A stretch of DNA of 64,000 bases from NCBI RefSeq assembly GCF_003664255.1, contig NZ_RCCV01000001.1, forward strand, positions 3,596,001 to 3,660,000, written 5' to 3'. This DNA is from Micromonospora sp. M71_S20. Lineage in GTDB: Bacteria; Actinomycetota; Actinomycetes; Mycobacteriales; Micromonosporaceae. The notes below the pieces were generated by a model. It searched no databases. It saw nothing but the letters and a program-made list of their open reading frames with translations, and was not told the origin of the DNA. This document shows, piece by piece, positions 54,581-63,331 of the stretch. The translations under genes were made by a program, and so were the position numbers. Each line of letters opens with the position of its first letter. Position 1 is the first letter of the stretch.

Positions 54581-57211
54581 TCAGCCGGCGCCGAAGCAGA
54601 CGAAGGCGGCGGCGGTGGCATGGGCGGCACCGCCGCCGTCGGTGTCGAACGCGCGCTGGGCCTCGGCGAGCGCCGCCGCCGGCGCAGCACCGGCACGCAT
54701 TCGCCGGTGCAGGTCCAGCATCAGCGCGGTGGTCAGGTCGGCCGGGACCGGCAACACGGTGGCGATCAGGCTGCGGGTGCCGAGGGCCAGCAGCACGGCG
54801 GTGAAGCCCATCACCTCGTCGCCCGGCCGGACGCCGGAGAGGCCGGAGTCGCAGGCGGAGAGCACCACACAGCCCGGTGGGCGGGTCAGCCGCTCCAACT
54901 CGTACGCGGTCAACGGCCCGTCGGCCAGTTCCAGTGTGGAGAAAAGAGGGTTGTCGGCGCGGAAGGTGCCGTGCGCGGCGACGTGCGCCAGCCCGGTCCC
55001 GTTCAGCGCGTCGGTGACCGCGTCGGCGGTGGCAGCGCAGCCGGTGAGGGAGCGGGAGCCGGGCAGGGCCGCGCCGAGCTGGCGTACCTCGGTCTCGGCG
55101 GCCGGTAGCCGGGGCCCGGCCACCAGCACCGGCGGGCCGGCCGGGACGATCCGCCCGACGGCGCGCAACCAGACCGTCGCCGAGGGCGCCACCGTCACCG
55201 GCCGGCCGGCACAGGTCGGCAGGCCCGACCAGGGCACGGCGTGCAGCGCGCCGATCGGGACGATCACCAGTGGCCGGTCGCCCAGCAGCCGGCGTACCGG
55301 GTCGAAGAGCTGCCGGTCCAGCGCGGTGGTGGCGAACTCGACCCCGGCCCGGGCGCTGGCCGAGTCGCCGGTGGTGACCAGCCGGCGCAGGCCGAACCGG
55401 TGCAGGCGGGCCCGGCCCAGCGCCTCGTCGAGCGGGCCGAGGTCGTGCAAGCTGGTCCGGCCGTCGCGGACGAGTACCGCCCGCAGCCGTGGCCCGTGCG
55501 CCACCAGCTCCAGCAGCACGGCGTCACCGAGCGCGGCGGCGAGGGCGCCAACCGTGGGCGGTGCCACCAGGCCGCCGCCGTCCGGCTCCCGCGCCCCGCC
55601 GTCCGCGCCCCGGGCCAGTTCCCGGATGCGCTGTTCGAGTCGGCCCTGGCTGCGCCGCAGCGCGTGCACGGGATGCCCGGCGAGCAGCGCGTCCTCCAGG
55701 GCGGTGCTGACCATCCGCAGCTCGGCCAGGGCGGCGGCCAGCCCGGGGTCCTGCGGCGGTTGCACCGCGCGCATCCGCAGGGCGTTGGCCCGCCAGCGTT
55801 CCGCCCAGGCCAGCACCTGGGCGGGCGTGCCGGTGCGGACGGCGATGTCCAGCCCTTCGGTGGCCAGTTCGTGCCCGTACGCCCCGCTGTGCGCGCGAAG
55901 CTCGGTGGCGCCCAGGGAGGCCCGGTGCCCGTCGAGCACCGCCAGTCCCCGGCGCAGGGCCCGGGCCGCGCCCCGCAGGTCACCGTCGAGCCGGCGACGC
56001 AGGGCGAGCGCGTACCAGCCCTGGGCCCGGTGCGGCGCGGTGCCCCGGCGGTGCGCGCGGGCCGCCACCGCCAGCAGCTCGGCCGCCTGGGCGGGCCGGC
56101 CCATCGCCTCGGCCAGCCGGGCGGCCTCGATCCGGGTGGTCAGCGCCGGCGAGGGCCAGCCGGTGGCGTCGAGCTGCCCGGCGGTTCGCACCATGGCGGT
56201 CAGCAGGGCCGTCGACCGGGTGCCCCTTGCGAACTCGGCGCGCAGCTCGACGTGCCGGGCGAAGGCGGCCCAGATGCGGCGTCCCTGGCGACGGAAGCGG
56301 GCCCGGGACGAGGCGGCGGCGGTCGCGGCGGTGTCCAGGTCGCCGGCGAGCAGCGCCGCCCGGGCCCGGGCCAGCAGCGCCTCGGCGAGATCCGAGGCCA
56401 TGCCCCGCCGCCGCAGCTCCGTCACGGCGGAGGCGGCGACCTCGACCGCCTCGTCGACCAGCGGCACCGAGAGCAGCAGTTCGAACCGGTCCAGCAGCAG
56501 TGCCGGACGGGGCACCGACAACCGGCGGTACTCGTCGCCGACGGCGGCGAAGGTGCGCAGGGCGCCCGCGACGTCGCCGCGCTGGCCGGCGGCGATGCCG
56601 ATGTTCCAGCGGGCGTCGGCGGCGGCCAGGTCGAGCCCGAGCCGGCTGAAGATGGCCGCGGAGCGGAACAGGTCGTCGTCGGCGTCCCGGCTGGTGCCCC
56701 GGTGGGCGTTGAGCAGTCCACGGTTGTTGCGCGCCCGCGCCTCCAGCAGCAGGTCGCCCTCACGCTGGGCGATCTCCACCGCGAGGCCGTAGTCCCGGAC
56801 CGCCTCGTCGAACCGCCCCCGGTAGTGCAGCACGACGCCCCGCTGCATCCGGGCCCGGCCGGCGTCGGCGCCGGTCAACCGGGGGAGGGCCAGGGTCACC
56901 GCGCGTAGCGCCGCGCCGGTGCGTCCGGCGTTGGCCAGGACGTACCCGAGGCTCATCCGGGCCAGTGCCCGCACCCGGGGCGAGTCGGTGACCCGCACCG
57001 CCCGGCGCAGGTGCCGTAGGGCGCCCGGCAGGTCGTTGAGCTCCCGCAGGGCCAGCCCGATGGCGCGTTCGGCGGTGGACCGCTCGTCGGCGTCGGGGTG
57101 GCCGACGGCGAGGACCTGCCGGGCGATCGCGATCGCCTCGCGGGGGTAGCGCTGGACTGCGTCGAGCGCGGCCTGGGCCGGGACGGCACCGGGAACGGCG
57201 CTGTCGGCCAT
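54581..57211 (-). CDS. TPR-CHAT protease (caspase-like)
   Basis: 876 residues. The first 550 or so are tetratricopeptide-like helices (ALRHLRRAVRVTDSPRVRAL, VVLHYRGRFDEAVRDYGLAV, ARNNRGLLNAHRGTSRDADD). The C-terminal 330 residues are a CHAT domain: VIVPIGALHAVPWSGLP, then catalytic H747 (HVAAHGTF) and C787 (VLSACDSG). CHAT proteins are cysteine proteases of the separase/caspase clan; the TPR part likely senses or binds a partner. Cytoplasmic. It is divergent from the S8-sigma operon with 187 bases between. ATG 57211 has only a weak ribosome site. Confidence 0.88.
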   Translation of the reverse strand: MADSAVPGAVPAQAALDAVQRYPREAIAIARQVLAVGHPDADERSTAERAIGLALRELNDLPGALRHLRRAVRVTDSPRVRALARMSLGYVLANAGRTGAALRAVTLALPRLTGADAGRARMQRGVVLHYRGRFDEAVRDYGLAVEIAQREGDLLLEARARNNRGLLNAHRGTSRDADDDLFRSAAIFSRLGLDLAAADARWNIGIAAGQRGDVAGALRTFAAVGDEYRRLSVPRPALLLDRFELLLSVPLVDEAVEVAASAVTELRRRGMASDLAEALLARARAALLAGDLDTAATAAASSRARFRRQGRRIWAAFARHVELRAEFARGTRSTALLTAMVRTAGQLDATGWPSPALTTRIEAARLAEAMGRPAQAAELLAVAARAHRRGTAPHRAQGWYALALRRRLDGDLRGAARALRRGLAVLDGHRASLGATELRAHSGAYGHELATEGLDIAVRTGTPAQVLAWAERWRANALRMRAVQPPQDPGLAAALAELRMVSTALEDALLAGHPVHALRRSQGRLEQRIRELARGADGGAREPDGGGLVAPPTVGALAAALGDAVLLELVAHGPRLRAVLVRDGRTSLHDLGPLDEALGRARLHRFGLRRLVTTGDSASARAGVEFATTALDRQLFDPVRRLLGDRPLVIVPIGALHAVPWSGLPTCAGRPVTVAPSATVWLRAVGRIVPAGPPVLVAGPRLPAAETEVRQLGAALPGSRSLTGCAATADAVTDALNGTGLAHVAAHGTFRADNPLFSTLELADGPLTAYELERLTRPPGCVVLSACDSGLSGVRPGDEVMGFTAVLLALGTRSLIATVLPVPADLTTALMLDLHRRMRAGAAPAAALAEAQRAFDTDGGGAAHATAAAFVCFGAG

Positions 57212-57291
57212 GCCAAGAAGAATCCCGCAGTCGCGCTGCCCGGTCAATCGCGTCCGGGTGTACGGGCATCAGTCGCCTGAGCGACGATCAA

Positions 57292-57319
57292 TTGACACCC
57301 GACTATCCTTTGAAATAAT
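57292..57319 (+). promoter_or_regulatory. Strong housekeeping-type promoter of the S8-sigma operon
   Basis: TTGACA (57292-57297), 16-bp spacer, AATAAT (57314-57319, 5 of 6). Such a near-consensus promoter is rare at this GC content. The near-palindrome GGAGAGCGCTTCC (57334-57346) lies just after the start region and may be an operator. Confidence 0.6.
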
Positions 57320-57398
57320 CGTCCCGGTGCCTCGGAGAGCGCTTCCGTAGCCGCCCGGCCCGTCGCCGACCACGCATCTTCGACCGCCTGGAGGACCG

Positions 57399-58709
57399 GT
57401 GCCGTCTGACGACTCCTTCGCGTCGCGCCCGCCCGCCGGGTTGTCCCGTCGGCAGGTCGTGGCCTGGTCCACCCTGGCCGCCGCGGCGGTGCCGCTCGGT
57501 CTCGTCGGGCGGGGCGGCCCGGCCGCCGCCGGCGAGTCGCCCGACGCGACCTACCAGCGCGTCTTCCTGGAGGCCCTGGCCGCCGACCCCGACCTGCGCC
57601 GGTACGCCGTCGAGGGCCGGGAGTTCCTCTACCGGCCCCGGCAGTTGCTGGTGGCTCACCCGGACGTGCAGCGGGTCGTGAGCCGGCTGCGCAGCTACGG
57701 CTACCCGGTCACCGAGGGTGTCGGCTTCGGCGGGGTCGCCCGGCTCCGCTTCGCCGCCGAGACCGACATCCCGTCGGTGGTGACCAGGCTCCGCGACCCG
57801 CAGCAGTGGCCCGGGCAGCCGGCGCCCCTGGTCCAGCCGCACCACGCCCTGCTCGGCTTCGGCAACATCATGGGTAACCCGGGCGGTCCGCCCCGGGTCG
57901 CCGCCGCGTTGCCGGCGCCGGATCCGGCGCGCGCGGGTGAGGGCGCGGGAGTGACGGTGGGGATCTGCGACACCGGCATCTGGCGGCAGGCCGGTTCCCG
58001 TCATCCGCAGTGGCTGGCCGGCAGCTATCTTCCCGAGGTCGACGACGAGGACGCGGTCTACGTCGGCGCGGACGTGCTGGCGCTGCAGGGTGGTCACGGC
58101 ACCTTCGTCGCCGGAGTGGTCCGGCAGGCCGCGCCGGGCGTACGTTTCGATCCCGAGGCCGCGCTGAACGCCACCGGCGTCGGCGACGAGGAGATGCTGG
58201 TCGCCGCCCTCGGCCGGCTCGGTCCGCAGGTGTCGGTCGTCAACCTCTCGTTGGGCTACTTCACCCAGGACGACCAGCCCCCGTTGCCGCTGGTCAACGC
58301 GTTGGCAGGGCTGCCCGGCAGGGCGGTGGTGGCGTCGGCGGGCAATGCCGGCACCAGCCGGCGGGCGTGGCCGGCCGCCCTGGACCGGGTCCTGGCGGTG
58401 GGCGCGGTGAGTGCCGGCTCCACCGGCCCGGTGCCGGCGCCGTACAGCAGCTACGGACCGTGGGTGGACGCCTGCGCCCTGGGGGATCGGACCAGCACCT
58501 ACGTCAGGGGTCGGCTCCAGTTGCCGGGACAACCGATCCGGTACTTCGACGGCTTCGCCGCCTGGGCCGGCACCTCGTTCGCCACCGGCCACGTCGCCGG
58601 CCGGCTGGCCGCCCTGATGACCAGCGCCGGGCTCGGCGCGGAGGCGGCCCGAGCCGCGCTGGTCGCCGGCCCGCGCTGGCACCCCGACTACGGCGTACTC
58701 GTCGCGTGA
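57399..58709 (+). CDS. S8 (subtilisin-family) serine protease
   Basis: 436 residues. A twin-arginine-like signal or anchor (SRRQVVAWSTLAAAAVPLGL) starts at residue 16. A helical domain of about 130 residues precedes the protease, which has D191 (ICDTGIW), H233 (GGHGTFVAG), N316 (ASAGNAG) and S393 (AGTSFATG). All four key residues are present, so it should be active, probably outside the membrane. GTG 57399 follows GGAGGA. A sigma gene follows after 31 bases, so they are likely one operon. Confidence 0.9.
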   Translation: MPSDDSFASRPPAGLSRRQVVAWSTLAAAAVPLGLVGRGGPAAAGESPDATYQRVFLEALAADPDLRRYAVEGREFLYRPRQLLVAHPDVQRVVSRLRSYGYPVTEGVGFGGVARLRFAAETDIPSVVTRLRDPQQWPGQPAPLVQPHHALLGFGNIMGNPGGPPRVAAALPAPDPARAGEGAGVTVGICDTGIWRQAGSRHPQWLAGSYLPEVDDEDAVYVGADVLALQGGHGTFVAGVVRQAAPGVRFDPEAALNATGVGDEEMLVAALGRLGPQVSVVNLSLGYFTQDDQPPLPLVNALAGLPGRAVVASAGNAGTSRRAWPAALDRVLAVGAVSAGSTGPVPAPYSSYGPWVDACALGDRTSTYVRGRLQLPGQPIRYFDGFAAWAGTSFATGHVAGRLAALMTSAGLGAEAARAALVAGPRWHPDYGVLVA

Positions 58710-58740
58710 GGCCGGCATCGGCGCCCCGGGCGTCGTACCG

Positions 58741-59379
58741 GTGAGCGAGCGCGGCACCGTCGGGCTTGTCGCCGCCGCCTCCTGCGGTGACGAGCGGGCG
58801 TGGGGTGAGTTGGTGCGCCGCTACACCCCACTGGTGCTCTCGGTGATCCGGTCGTACGGACTCGACCAGGTCGACGCGGCGGACGTCAACCAGACCGTCT
58901 GGCTGCGTGCGGTGGAGCACCTGGGACGGCTGCGGGAGTCGAACGCCCTGCCCGCCTGGCTGATCACCACCACCCGACGCGAGTGTTACCGGCTGCTTCG
59001 CCTCGGCCGGCGGACCCAGCCGTTCGACCCGTACGACGACTCGGTCGACGGGCACGTCGGTGCCCGTCTGCTGGTGGATCCGGTCACCCCGGACGAGGAC
59101 CTGTTGCGCGCCGAGCGGCAGCAGGCGCTGCGGGAGGCGTTCGCGCAGTTGCCGCCGCGCTGCCGGGACCTGCTGGCGCTGCTGATGGCCGATCCGCCGG
59201 TCAGCTACCGCGAGATCGGCGCCCGGTTGGGCATGCCGGTGGGTAGCGTCGGTCCGAGCCAGGCCCGGTGCCTGCACAAGCTGCGGAACTGTCCGGCACT
59301 CGCCCCGTTCCTCAGGGCGCGTCCGGGCGACGAGGGGAGCGGAGGTGACCGGGATGGAGCCGTGGCCGCCAGCCGCTGA
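58741..59379 (+). CDS. ECF-type RNA polymerase sigma factor
   Basis: 212 residues. Sigma region 2 is at about 20-90 (WGELVRRYTPLVLSVIRSYG, DAADVNQTVWLRAVEHLGRL, LPAWLITTTRRECYRLLR), and region 4 at about 130-190 (REAFAQLPPRCRDLLALLM, SYREIGARLGMPVGSVGPSQ). It directs RNA polymerase to a small target set. There is no classic zinc anti-sigma gene; the next gene overlaps by 35 bases and may play that part. GTG start. Confidence 0.9.
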   Translation: MSERGTVGLVAAASCGDERAWGELVRRYTPLVLSVIRSYGLDQVDAADVNQTVWLRAVEHLGRLRESNALPAWLITTTRRECYRLLRLGRRTQPFDPYDDSVDGHVGARLLVDPVTPDEDLLRAERQQALREAFAQLPPRCRDLLALLMADPPVSYREIGARLGMPVGSVGPSQARCLHKLRNCPALAPFLRARPGDEGSGGDRDGAVAASR

Positions 59380-59818
59380 CGACGCCCTGCTGGCCGAGTT
59401 GAGGGCCGCCCTGCGGGACTCCGGCCCGGTGCCGGAGGAGTTCCTGGCCGCGGCCCTCGCCGCGTTCAGCTGGCGGACCGTCGACGCCGAACTGGCCCTC
59501 GCCGAGCTGACCTTCGACTCGGCCTGCGACCCGGAACCGGCCGGTCTCACCCGGTCCGCCGGCTCGGCGCGCACGCTGACGTTCCGCACCGGTGCGGTGG
59601 TGGTCGAGATCGAGGTGACCCCGACCGGCATCGTCGGGCAGCTCTCCCCGGCCCGGGGCGGGCGGGTCACCGCCCGGACCTCCCTCGGCCCGTACGAGGA
59701 GGTGCCGGTGGACGCGGTCGGCTACTTCTCGATGGGGATGCCGCCCGCCGGTCCGGTCCAGCTCTGCGCCCGCACCGCCGGGTACGCGGTGGCGACCACC
59801 TGGGTCACCCTGCGCTGA
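59345..59818 (+). CDS. Small protein with C-terminal beta-sandwich, candidate sigma partner
   Basis: 157 residues. The first 60 are helical (LLAELRAALRDSGPVPEEFL, AALAAFSWRTVDAELALAEL). The rest looks like a transthyretin/carboxypeptidase-regulatory-like beta domain (TFRTGAVVVEIEVTPTGIVG, VPVDAVGYFSMG, GPVQLCARTAGY). No signal or membrane helix. It overlaps the sigma gene by 35 bases, so the products are made together. I have seen like proteins beside sigma, CHAT and S8 genes in other actinomycetes; none has a proven task that I know of. Confidence 0.75.
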   Translation: MTGMEPWPPAADDALLAELRAALRDSGPVPEEFLAAALAAFSWRTVDAELALAELTFDSACDPEPAGLTRSAGSARTLTFRTGAVVVEIEVTPTGIVGQLSPARGGRVTARTSLGPYEEVPVDAVGYFSMGMPPAGPVQLCARTAGYAVATTWVTLR

Positions 59819-59908: not shown

Positions 59909-60952
59909 CTACTTGGCCCGCGGGGCCACCGTGATGTCGTACCGCACTCCGCCGAGGTCGGCCCGCTCGGCGCCGGTGGTGTCCGGGCCGACCTGGGTCA
60001 CGTTGACGGCGATCCTCTCCTGGGTCGGCACGGTCGCCGTGAAGTGCAGCGAGAAGGCGAGCCGCTCACCGGGGTTGAGCTCCAGGTTGTCCAGGCTGGC
60101 CTGGCCGATGTCGACGATCTCGACCTGGTTGCGGCCTACCTCGCGGACACCCTTGCCGGCCTTGCCGCCCTTGGCCCAGCGCTCGAACAGGGTCGGGCCG
60201 AGGTCCGCGACGAGCCGGCCACCGGCGGCCTGGAACGGTGCCCCGGTCTGGCTGAAGACCACGCTGCTGCGGGCCGGCCGGGTCAGCGTGTTGCCGATGG
60301 CGAACGGCCGCGTCTGCGCCTGGCCACCGGCGGTCACCGCCACCGAGTCCACGTTGCGCCAGGCGATGTTGTTGTTGTGACGGGTGTTGACGCCGATGTC
60401 CGGTCCCTCGAAGGTCATCGGGTCGTTGGGGGAGATCCAGCGGGCCAGCAGGCAGAAGTGACCCGGGCCCGGCACGTTGTCCCACGGGATGGTGACCGAG
60501 GTGACGCCCGGGTAGACCGGCACCGCCATCGCGCCGATCTGCGTCCACGCGCCCGGCCAGGCCGCCCCGCCGCCGGGCGTGGTCCGGTAGACCCAGATCG
60601 TGCCCTCCTCCATCACGCTGTCGCCGTACGGGCCGGGGTTGCGCAGCTTGATGAAGATGTAGTTCCGCTGGCCGACGATCGGATTCTGGCTGGTCGCGCA
60701 CTCGACGGCGGTGTGACAGACCTTGATGTCCGGGCTCTGCCAGAGCGGGTTGAGCGCGTGCGGTTCGAGCCCCACGTCGGCGGCCGTGTCCTTCATGTAC
60801 ACGTCGACCGCGGCGGCGGTGGCGGGGCCGTCCGCCGGGCCGGCCAGTGGCGCGGCACCGGCTGCGGTGACGGACAACAGCGTCGCCAGTGCCGCGCCGG
60901 TGAGCAGGGCGAGCGTCGAACGACGCGCTCTTCCCGCGAGTCTGGTAGACAC
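59909..60952 (-). CDS. Secreted protein, function unknown
   Basis: 347 residues. A Sec signal covers about the first 35 (LALLTGAALATLLSVTAAGA). The mature part is beta-rich with YMKDTAADVGLEPHALNP, NYIFIKLRNPG, HFCLLARWISPNDPM and NNNIAWRNVDSV; it looks like an extracellular beta-sandwich pair. I recall the GHFCLLARW and NNIAWRN strings from other secreted bacterial proteins without a known job. GTG 60952 is chosen because GGGAGGA lies just before; ATG 61015 is upstream but has no ribosome site. Confidence 0.75.
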   Translation of the reverse strand: MSTRLAGRARRSTLALLTGAALATLLSVTAAGAAPLAGPADGPATAAAVDVYMKDTAADVGLEPHALNPLWQSPDIKVCHTAVECATSQNPIVGQRNYIFIKLRNPGPYGDSVMEEGTIWVYRTTPGGGAAWPGAWTQIGAMAVPVYPGVTSVTIPWDNVPGPGHFCLLARWISPNDPMTFEGPDIGVNTRHNNNIAWRNVDSVAVTAGGQAQTRPFAIGNTLTRPARSSVVFSQTGAPFQAAGGRLVADLGPTLFERWAKGGKAGKGVREVGRNQVEIVDIGQASLDNLELNPGERLAFSLHFTATVPTQERIAVNVTQVGPDTTGAERADLGGVRYDITVAPRAK

Positions 60953-61126
60953 ATTTCCTCCCGATGATGGGGGATCGCCGTTCGCCCCGAGGTGGTGGCG
61001 TGGGCGGGTGGACATCCTTACGGAGCCCGATCGATGCGAGTAGATACATCTGCCGCCGGCGGGTGATGTCAGATGGTGGGAGTTGCCGTCAAGCCGGCGA
61101 AAGCCGCGCAGCGCTCGGACGTGCGC

Positions 61127-61996: not shown

Positions 61997-63331
61997 ATGT
62001 TCCCGTTTCCCGACGAAGCGACCAGGAAGGCACTCGATCTCGGCCGGCGCGAGGTGTTCCAGACCTACCGGGTGCTGATGGCCTGCGAACTGCAGCGGCT
62101 GCGCCCCGTCGTACGGGCGCTGCCGGCGGGGCTGCGCCGGGACCGGTTGACCGCCCGGCTCGACAAGGTCGCCGCCCTGGCCGTCGGGACCTGGCTGCAG
62201 CAGATCTCGGAACGCGGCGCGACGATGCACCAGGCGGCCACCCTGTTCAAGGAGGTGCAGGACTCTCTCGACGGGGTCGTGCCCTCCGTCGTCGGCAATC
62301 CCCACCTCACCGCCGCTCTGGACGAACTGAAGACCAGGATCGTCGACGTCATGAACGACGACAGGAGTCCCACGCACGTCGCCGTCAACACCGCGTTCGC
62401 GCGTCTGTTCGGGTCCACCTCATCGGTGGCCAAGGCGCGTTTCGCGCAGACGGTCACGGCCCTGCGGGCGCTGCTCACGCGCACCGACGGCCGACGGTCG
62501 GGATTCGTGTGCAACCTGTCGCTGCCCGACGGGATGGGCGCGCTGGCCAGCGGTCAGGGCGACACCGCCATCATCAACGTGGGTCGCTCCGCGCTCGACG
62601 GGACGATGCACCTGTGGGAGCTCGCCGCCACGCTCGTGCACGAGGGTACGCACATCCTGGCGGACAACCCGACGGTCGACATCGTCTACCGCCACCGCAA
62701 CGCCGCCTACTACCTGCAGGGCCAGATCGCCCTGCAGAACGCCGCCAACTTCGAGCAGACCGTCTACGAGGCGTTGGGCCAGGGTGGCCCGTTCCCCACC
62801 GACGCCGAGGTGGCCGCCATGCGGGGCCGCAGTGCGCCCCGGACGGACTCGCTGCACACCGTGCTCGCGTCCCGCATCACCCGTGCGTGGGTGCGCACCT
62901 ACGACTTCACCTGCCTCGACTTCACCAGGACCGACCTGCCCAAGCCGGTCGCTCTCGTGCTCACCGACCTGCCGCAGGACCGGGCGTACGCGCCGTTGAC
63001 CAAGGCGTACATGGAGGCACTGCACGCGGCGATGCTGGCGCTGATGCGGGCGGAGGAGCGGCTGGTGGTGCGGGCCGAGCCGAAGATGCTGAACCACTCG
63101 ACGGTGATCAACTCGGACGGCACCATCCGGTTCACCATCAACTCCGACCTTGCCGCTCAGACTCCCGTGGCCCAGCTCCTGCACTGGATGCTCGACGAGC
63201 TCGTCGCCGAGGCGAAGTGCCAGATCCCCAAGGACACGGCGCAACTGCTGGCCCTGATCCTGGGCATCGAGAAGTTCGACCGGGACAACGTGCACGACGT
63301 GCTGAACGACTTCTACGGCTCCTTCCACTGA
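61997..63331 (+). CDS. Protein with HExxH zinc-protease-like motif, function unknown
   Basis: 444 residues. The middle has LVHEGTHILADN, with H215-E216-H219 as an HExxH zinc site, and E253 (NFEQTVYEALG) as a possible third ligand. The N-terminal 150 are helical; the C-terminal 120 mix helix and strand (HSTVINSDGTIRFTINSDL). No signal peptide. I do not know a named family; it may be a toxin-type or effector metalloprotease. ATG 61997 follows GAAGGAG at 8 bases. It has no evident partner gene. Confidence 0.65.
   Translation: MFPFPDEATRKALDLGRREVFQTYRVLMACELQRLRPVVRALPAGLRRDRLTARLDKVAALAVGTWLQQISERGATMHQAATLFKEVQDSLDGVVPSVVGNPHLTAALDELKTRIVDVMNDDRSPTHVAVNTAFARLFGSTSSVAKARFAQTVTALRALLTRTDGRRSGFVCNLSLPDGMGALASGQGDTAIINVGRSALDGTMHLWELAATLVHEGTHILADNPTVDIVYRHRNAAYYLQGQIALQNAANFEQTVYEALGQGGPFPTDAEVAAMRGRSAPRTDSLHTVLASRITRAWVRTYDFTCLDFTRTDLPKPVALVLTDLPQDRAYAPLTKAYMEALHAAMLALMRAEERLVVRAEPKMLNHSTVINSDGTIRFTINSDLAAQTPVAQLLHWMLDELVAEAKCQIPKDTAQLLALILGIEKFDRDNVHDVLNDFYGSFH

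What the first reader, a model, noticed from the sequence alone, without database searches (positions are those of the whole stretch)
54581..59818. TPR-CHAT protease, S8 protease, ECF sigma factor and small beta-domain protein form one divergent module
Seen: an intact TPR-CHAT (H747, C787) diverges from an operon of an intact S8 protease, an ECF sigma factor and a 157-residue protein that overlaps the sigma gene by 35 bases. There is no classic anti-sigma. Known: in type III-E CRISPR a TPR-CHAT protease cuts Csx30 and thereby frees a sigma factor (CASP-sigma). Inference: here, without CRISPR, the CHAT protease may cut the small protein to release the sigma factor, with the S8 protease as the sensor or effector outside the membrane. 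This would be a stress or defence switch by proteolysis.
Basis: partly seen in the sequence, partly recalled or inferred. Interest (0 to 1): 0.78.

Follow-up and report, generated by a model that had tools for sequence, protein, structure and literature searches.

The report
Protease-cut sigma switch, ECF54 type
Four linked genes in a soil bacterium look like a stress switch in which a caspase-like protease cuts a small inhibitor protein at one never-changing arginine to set free a transcription factor; the gene grouping was already known, but the small protein's likely role and the predicted cut site give it a simple test.

Summary
In detail: an intact TPR-CHAT protease diverges from an S8 protease, an ECF sigma factor (SIG) and a small protein (SML). 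The four genes are a real module. In 101 loci chosen for SML, SIG is present in 98, S8 in 95 and CHAT in 94, in many gene orders. [quoted passage not shown]

What this work adds:
(1) The "carboxypeptidase" of ECF54 is probably SML, whose beta-sandwich is carboxypeptidase-regulatory-like, not a peptidase.
(2) In one divergent clade SML carries an anti-sigma-like domain (10 of 14 at E up to 1, best 1.7e-5).
(3) One arginine (R67) in SML's predicted-disordered linker is invariant in 233 of 233 sequences and 14 of 14 of the divergent form.
(4) CHAT folds like Craspase TPR-CHAT and separase.

Best model: CHAT cuts SML after R67 and frees SIG; S8 is more likely an output than the cutter. Cleavage, sigma binding and trigger are not shown. 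The window's own SML shows no anti-sigma similarity by sequence.

The parts
54581..57211 (-). TPR-CHAT protease, 876 aa from the ATG at 57211 (ORF opens at TTG 57247)
   Evidence: Pfam CHAT and TPR; model pLDDT 90.8; closest folds Craspase TPR-CHAT and separase
54971..54973 (-). codon of catalytic His747 of CHAT
   Evidence: H in 76 of 84 rows, the rest gaps or one X; invariant in 35 of 35 in A4
54851..54853 (-). codon of catalytic Cys787 of CHAT
   Evidence: C in 79 of 84 rows, the rest gaps; invariant in 35 of 35 in A4
57217..57248 (-). conserved promoter-like site of CHAT (TTGAC, then a -10-like element just before the ATG)
   Evidence: TTGAC site listed for 15 of 16 loci; no hit in L054
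57291..57321 (+). conserved promoter-like site of the S8-SIG-SML operon, ATTGAC-N16-RAAKAATYG
   Evidence: aligned in 16 Micromonospora-type loci; the strict pattern occurs once in the 7.8 Mb genome, control 0
57399..58709 (+). S8 (subtilase) protease, 436 aa, with Tat-type signal peptide
   Evidence: Pfam S8; catalytic residues conserved; Tat motif
57444..57536 (+). Tat-type signal of S8 (SRRQVV, hydrophobic stretch, A-x-A)
58741..59379 (+). ECF sigma factor SIG, 212 aa (ECF54-type context)
   Evidence: Pfam r2 and r4; TIGR02937 E 2.4e-24; context as published for ECF54
59372..59518 (+). SML N-terminal part (residues 7-55: two helices and one strand), candidate sigma-binding part
   Evidence: AlphaFold2 model; no profile similarity to anti-sigma domains in this form
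59519..59569 (+). SML linker, residues 56-72, lowest confidence at 64-69
   Evidence: residues 57-74 correspond to 11-28 residues across 86 mapped representatives
59552..59554 (+). codon of invariant Arg67, predicted CHAT cut site (R67|S68)
   Evidence: R in 233 of 233 rows and 87 of 87 cluster representatives; five different codons in 114 mapped locus ORFs
59570..59815 (+). SML beta-sandwich, residues 73-154, CarboxypepD_reg/Ig-like

Best explanation
The four genes form a soluble proteolytic sigma switch. At rest the small protein SML holds the ECF sigma factor SIG inactive through its N-terminal part (inferred). A signal, probably sensed through the TPR array of the TPR-CHAT protease, activates CHAT (inferred). 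CHAT then cuts SML in its flexible linker after the invariant Arg67, parting the sigma-binding end from the beta-sandwich end, and SIG is freed (inferred from the conserved site). SIG drives a response that includes or accompanies S8, a second protease (inferred). S8 has an export signal in the window's clade and most likely acts as an output rather than as the cutter of SML. Shown here: the genes, their linkage and co-occurrence, intact active-site residues, the invariant arginine in a linker predicted to be disordered, the anti-sigma-like domain in one clade of SML, and the separase/Craspase-like predicted fold of CHAT.
Against: The N-terminus of the window's form of SML shows no similarity to anti-sigma domains: NCBIfam antisigma in 0 of 91, long versus short N-termini E 0.73, no anti-sigma chain among the PDB hits. 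An invariant arginine could be a docking or structural residue. Craspases cut Csx30 at a non-conserved site, so a CHAT protease does not need one. Within one gene order the distance correlations do not single out SIG-SML or CHAT-SML. No sigma binding, cleavage or signal was tested. 7 of 49 SML genomes have no family CHAT at E 1e-60, and the one of these searched more deeply has none at 1e-20 (G585). Linkage is not strict: three opened CHAT regions (L177-L179) have no SIG or SML in view. The 101 loci were picked by SML similarity, not at random.
Confidence: 0.52

Rival explanations
1. There is no anti-sigma. The proteases act on SIG itself, as proposed in print for ECF54, and SML is an adaptor that presents SIG to CHAT or S8; R67 is a docking residue.
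For: A review of non-canonical ECF factors reports the proposal of proteolytic control of ECF54 without an anti-sigma. SML nearly always stands beside SIG (95 of 101 loci within 120 nt on the same strand).
Against: Anti-sigma-like domain in the long form of SML; R67 lies in the least ordered, length-variable stretch, odd for a docking residue.
Confidence: 0.17
2. S8, not CHAT, cuts SML at R67; CHAT activates S8 or is a separate arm.
For: No export signal of S8 was seen in most lineages examined. Over all loci CHAT-S8 distances have the second-highest partial correlation after SIG-SML (0.46 and 0.55).
Against: S8 carries a Tat signal in the window's clade and a Sec-like one in the long-form clade, where the Arg is kept. 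The S8 columns taken as S1 pocket (numbering recalled) are not consistently acidic: D or E in 21 of 93 at residue 317, mostly F, S, A, L or C at 323.
Confidence: 0.13
3. SML is an anti-sigma released by conformational change. R67 is part of a binding interface for CHAT or SIG and is not cut.
For: Invariant residues often mark interfaces; a linker may fold on binding (general knowledge).
Against: Its neighbours vary, with small residues on the C-terminal side (A, S or G in 72 of 87), as at a cut site.
Confidence: 0.13
4. Chance or passive neighbourhood: four unrelated genes side by side.
For: None found.
Against: 98, 95 and 94 of 101 loci in many orders; co-retention when unlinked.
Confidence: 0.01

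Closest known systems
ECF54 sigma group context (Casas-Pastor 2021, Huang 2015; not read, seen only as cited in passages of PMC8999054)
   Same: ECF sigma with conserved neighbours holding CHAT, subtilase and carboxypeptidase domains; proteolytic control proposed
   Different: In the passages seen no anti-sigma is named. Here the 'carboxypeptidase' reads as a regulatory-like beta-sandwich on SML, the anti-sigma candidate, with an invariant arginine
Type III-E CASP/Craspase: Cas7-11, Csx29 (TPR-CHAT), Csx30, CASP-sigma (PMC10028731, PMC11106740; abstract and passages)
   Different: No RAMP-domain match in this genome. SML is 154 aa and its profile matches no PDB sequence at E below 0.2. The predicted site is invariant, whereas Craspase sites differ (A|S, L|D, M|K). 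An S8 gene is added
DdvA of Myxococcus xanthus, transmembrane anti-sigma with a CHAT domain (PDB 8rot, 8rw5)
   Different: One fused membrane protein; here anti-sigma candidate and CHAT are separate proteins
Separase (CHAT-like clan CD protease; clan recalled)
   Different: Bacterial, about 10-16% identity; own specificity untested
EACC2-caspase-ECF sigma-TPR neighbourhoods (PMC8195603, passages)
   Same: Caspase domain beside an ECF sigma and a TPR protein; autopeptidase activation proposed
   Different: Other domains (EACC2, DUF1822); no S8 or SML mentioned in the passages seen

Membership tests
ECF54 sigma group | ECF sigma with regions 2 and 4 only | tested here: met
ECF54 sigma group | Conserved neighbours: CHAT, subtilase, carboxypeptidase-type domain | tested here: met
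   (the carboxypeptidase-type match is weak); feature list as cited in PMC8999054
ECF54 sigma group | Sequence falls in the ECF54 subtree or profile (model SFT86700.1) | not tested
   The ECF54 profile and that sequence were not obtained; of 6482 sigma relatives the 120 listed do not name that record
Type III-E CASP/Craspase | TPR-CHAT protease with His-Cys dyad | tested here: met
Type III-E CASP/Craspase | Cas7-11/gRAMP effector (RAMP domains) in the genome | tested here: not met
   PF03787: 0 matches in own genome; control rings in 4 of 14
Type III-E CASP/Craspase | Csx30-like inhibitor | tested here: inconclusive
   No Csx30 among PDB sequence matches to the SML profile and none in the rows shown of the fold searches, which is no proof of absence
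Anti-sigma factor (ZAS/zf-HC2/RskA-type domain) | Recognisable anti-sigma domain in the window's SML | tested here: not met
Anti-sigma factor (ZAS/zf-HC2/RskA-type domain) | Recognisable anti-sigma domain in long-form SML homologues | tested here: met
   10 of 14 NCBIfam antisigma at E up to 1, best 1.7e-5 (cut-off not shown); Pfam hits weak and, where shown, below cut-off; RskA first in PDB at E 0.25
Anti-sigma factor (ZAS/zf-HC2/RskA-type domain) | Binds and inhibits the cognate sigma | not testable with these tools
   needs experiment
CHAT/separase-like clan CD protease | Caspase-like fold with His and Cys | tested here: met
   (predicted fold)
CHAT/separase-like clan CD protease | Arg at P1 | not testable with these tools
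   only the invariant Arg of the presumed substrate

The most novel reading that the evidence does not exclude
ECF54 modules are a widespread CRISPR-free counterpart, perhaps the source, of the Craspase switch: a separase-like, arginine-specific TPR-CHAT protease releases an ECF sigma by cutting a soluble anti-sigma at one universally conserved arginine. The 'carboxypeptidase' of ECF54 is the missing anti-sigma, and type III-E CRISPR placed an RNA-guided sensor on such a CHAT-inhibitor-sigma triad.
Probability: 0.28. Interest if true: 0.85.

Novelty: new variant of a known kind. Interest (0 to 1): 0.62.

Why it matters
ECF54 is listed in the review seen here as a sigma group with protease neighbours and no anti-sigma, and I found no experiment on it in the held library. 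If SML is the inhibitor and R67 the cut, one substitution tests the whole mechanism. It would suggest that TPR-CHAT control of sigma factors is a general bacterial device, of which the CRISPR type III-E protease and the Myxococcus anti-sigma DdvA are special cases.

Tried and rejected
Distance correlations among the four proteins (82 loci; 53 after thinning): over all layouts SIG-SML and CHAT-S8 pair up (partial 0.55 and 0.46), but within the single layout CHAT< S8> SIG> SML> (27 loci) the six partials run from 0.18 to 0.42 with overlapping ranges, so this is not used as proof. Before, 9 of the 101 loci lacked one of the four genes and 10 more with cut, broken or duplicated genes were dropped by hand.

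The similarity of the short-form SML N-terminus to anti-sigma domains was sought and not found. A Csx30 or anti-sigma match was not among the rows shown in the fold searches of SML.

A scan with a strict promoter pattern found only the own promoter. The two divergent promoters look sigma-A-like (TTGAC, A...T; consensus recalled) and do not show what SIG recognises.

S1-pocket mapping of CHAT was not possible without coordinates. For S8 it rests on recalled subtilisin numbering. Direct proof of ECF54 membership through SFT86700.1 was not reached: one search gave 6482 sigma relatives and that record is not named in the 120 listed.

Rows dropped: of 18 ORFs, 14 were aligned as A5; the two pieces of a frame-broken L162 ORF and L174 and L175 (short form) were left out. 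Of the 8 CHAT-only genomes G463 was not opened. The 20 regions and 18 were chosen by me from the listed places.

Literature: searches list no paper that by title or abstract start names SML as anti-sigma or the arginine. The two primary ECF papers could not be read, so they may say more.
Full report
WHAT IS THERE. The window lies in a 7.8 Mb genome, by the nearest named relatives of the small protein a Micromonospora. On the minus strand is a TPR-CHAT protein, 876 aa from the ATG at 57211. On the plus strand are an S8 protease (57399-58709), an ECF sigma factor SIG (58741-59379) and a small protein SML (59354-59818, 154 aa). Pfam supports the first three; SML has no Pfam or NCBIfam match of its own at E 0.01. 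Active-site residues of both proteases are intact and conserved. The genome has no RAMP-domain match and one other CHAT match by this profile at E 1e-5.

THE MODULE IS REAL. SML was used as the marker. It is found in 87 of 200 genomes drawn from the family and in 49 of 396 drawn across the phylum, some of these by weak matches to the beta domain only. A scan of named genomes gave 157 confirmed places, of which the best 80 were kept. With the window and 20 regions that I chose, 101 loci were examined: SIG in 98, S8 in 95, CHAT in 94. Gene order is shuffled (48 loci CHAT< S8> SIG> SML>, 23 loci S8< CHAT> SIG> SML>, the rest in many other orders), so the linkage is not just inherited synteny. Family CHAT, searched on its own at E 1e-60, is in 50 of 396 genomes and shares 42 with SML. 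Seven of the 8 CHAT-only genomes were opened and each has a divergent SML with SIG and CHAT. Of five genomes with no CHAT in view of SML, four have the CHAT elsewhere and one (G585) has none at E 1e-20; in three of the four, S8 lies next to that CHAT, and the fourth sits at a contig end. In three more genomes (G569, G284, G433; L177-L179) the CHAT region has no SIG or SML in view although the genome has SML elsewhere. So linkage is strong but not strict, and the parts are kept together even when apart.

ALREADY IN PRINT. A 2022 review (PMC8999054, passages) says that proteolytic control without an anti-sigma has been proposed for group ECF54 because carboxypeptidase, subtilase and CHAT proteins are conserved beside it, with a Geodermatophilus sigma as model. 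This is clearly the same context. It cites Casas-Pastor 2021 and Huang 2015, neither of which could be read. The association is therefore not new, and I found no experiment on it in the held library (searches).

THE INVARIANT ARGININE. R67 lies in that linker. It is Arg in 91 of 91 rows of A3 and in 233 of 233 rows of a larger, partly redundant set (120 locus ORFs and 113 proteins), 87 of 87 after clustering at 70% identity. Neighbouring columns vary widely. The next residue is A, S or G in 72 of 87 representatives, and the residue before is V or T in 62. The codon varies among five arginine codons (114 mapped, 6 not mapped). Control: 58 of 86 mapped representatives have exactly one Arg in the linker (24 have two, 4 have three); Arg is 6.8% outside it and 2.5% of other linker positions. 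This is what a conserved protease site looks like; a docking residue cannot be excluded.

AN ANTI-SIGMA FORM. In one clade (14 sequences from regions L161, L163-L173, L176 and L180) SML is about 190-214 aa with another N-terminus. That N-terminus matches, at E up to 1, NCBIfam 'anti-sigma factor' in 10 of 14 (best E 1.7e-5), Pfam zf-HC2 in 7 and RskA_N in 2 of 14, and its best PDB sequence is the anti-sigma RskA (E 0.25). The scores are low one by one but agree. Long and short forms are homologous over linker and beta domain (E 6.5e-12), and the arginine is again invariant, 14 of 14. Against this, the short form in the window shows no anti-sigma similarity in its own N-terminus, so for it the role is inferred by homology, position and gene coupling (SIG stop to SML start, median -1.5 nt; 95 of 96 same-strand cases within 120 nt).

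PROMOTERS. In the 16 Micromonospora-type loci the S8 operon has a conserved ATTGAC-N16-RAAKAATYG-type site, and in 15 of 16 a TTGAC site runs towards CHAT, ending just before its ATG. The strict S8-side pattern occurs once in the genome. Whether SIG reads these sites is unknown; they also resemble ordinary sigma-A promoters (consensus recalled).

WHAT DOES NOT HELP. Pairwise distance correlations suggest SIG-SML and CHAT-S8 pairs overall but not within a single layout.

VERDICT. The S8-as-sensor part is not supported. The module fits the known ECF54 context; the anti-sigma reading of the fourth gene and the universal arginine are what I add.

Noticed in passing
L145 (G534:C77:21427-41113) and L143 (G295:C7:12254-28700): Multiplied arrays: three SML, two S8 and two CHAT with a single SIG (L145), and two SML and two CHAT with one SIG and one S8 (L143); SML can stand beside CHAT or S8 away from sigma.
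   Followed up: partly
L067 and L068 (Blastococcus mobilis, one contig): Two neighbouring SML-S8-CHAT sets, with a SIG seen only near the second and facing the other way.
   Followed up: no
L161, L163-L169, L171-L173, L176, L180: S8 of the long-form clade has a Sec-like N-terminal hydrophobic stretch, while S8 in most other lineages examined has none: export of S8 seems to have been gained or lost more than once.
   Followed up: partly
G000:C1:445262-446188: A second, more distant CHAT protein in the same genome (67.7 bits).
   Followed up: no
window 59909-61015 (-): 368-aa protein without Pfam or NCBIfam match at E 0.01, with a hydrophobic stretch near the N-terminus, convergent with SML.
   Followed up: no
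window 61997-63331 (+): 444-aa protein with a sub-threshold match to Aspzincin_M35 (E 3e-5), another possible protease close by.
   Followed up: no
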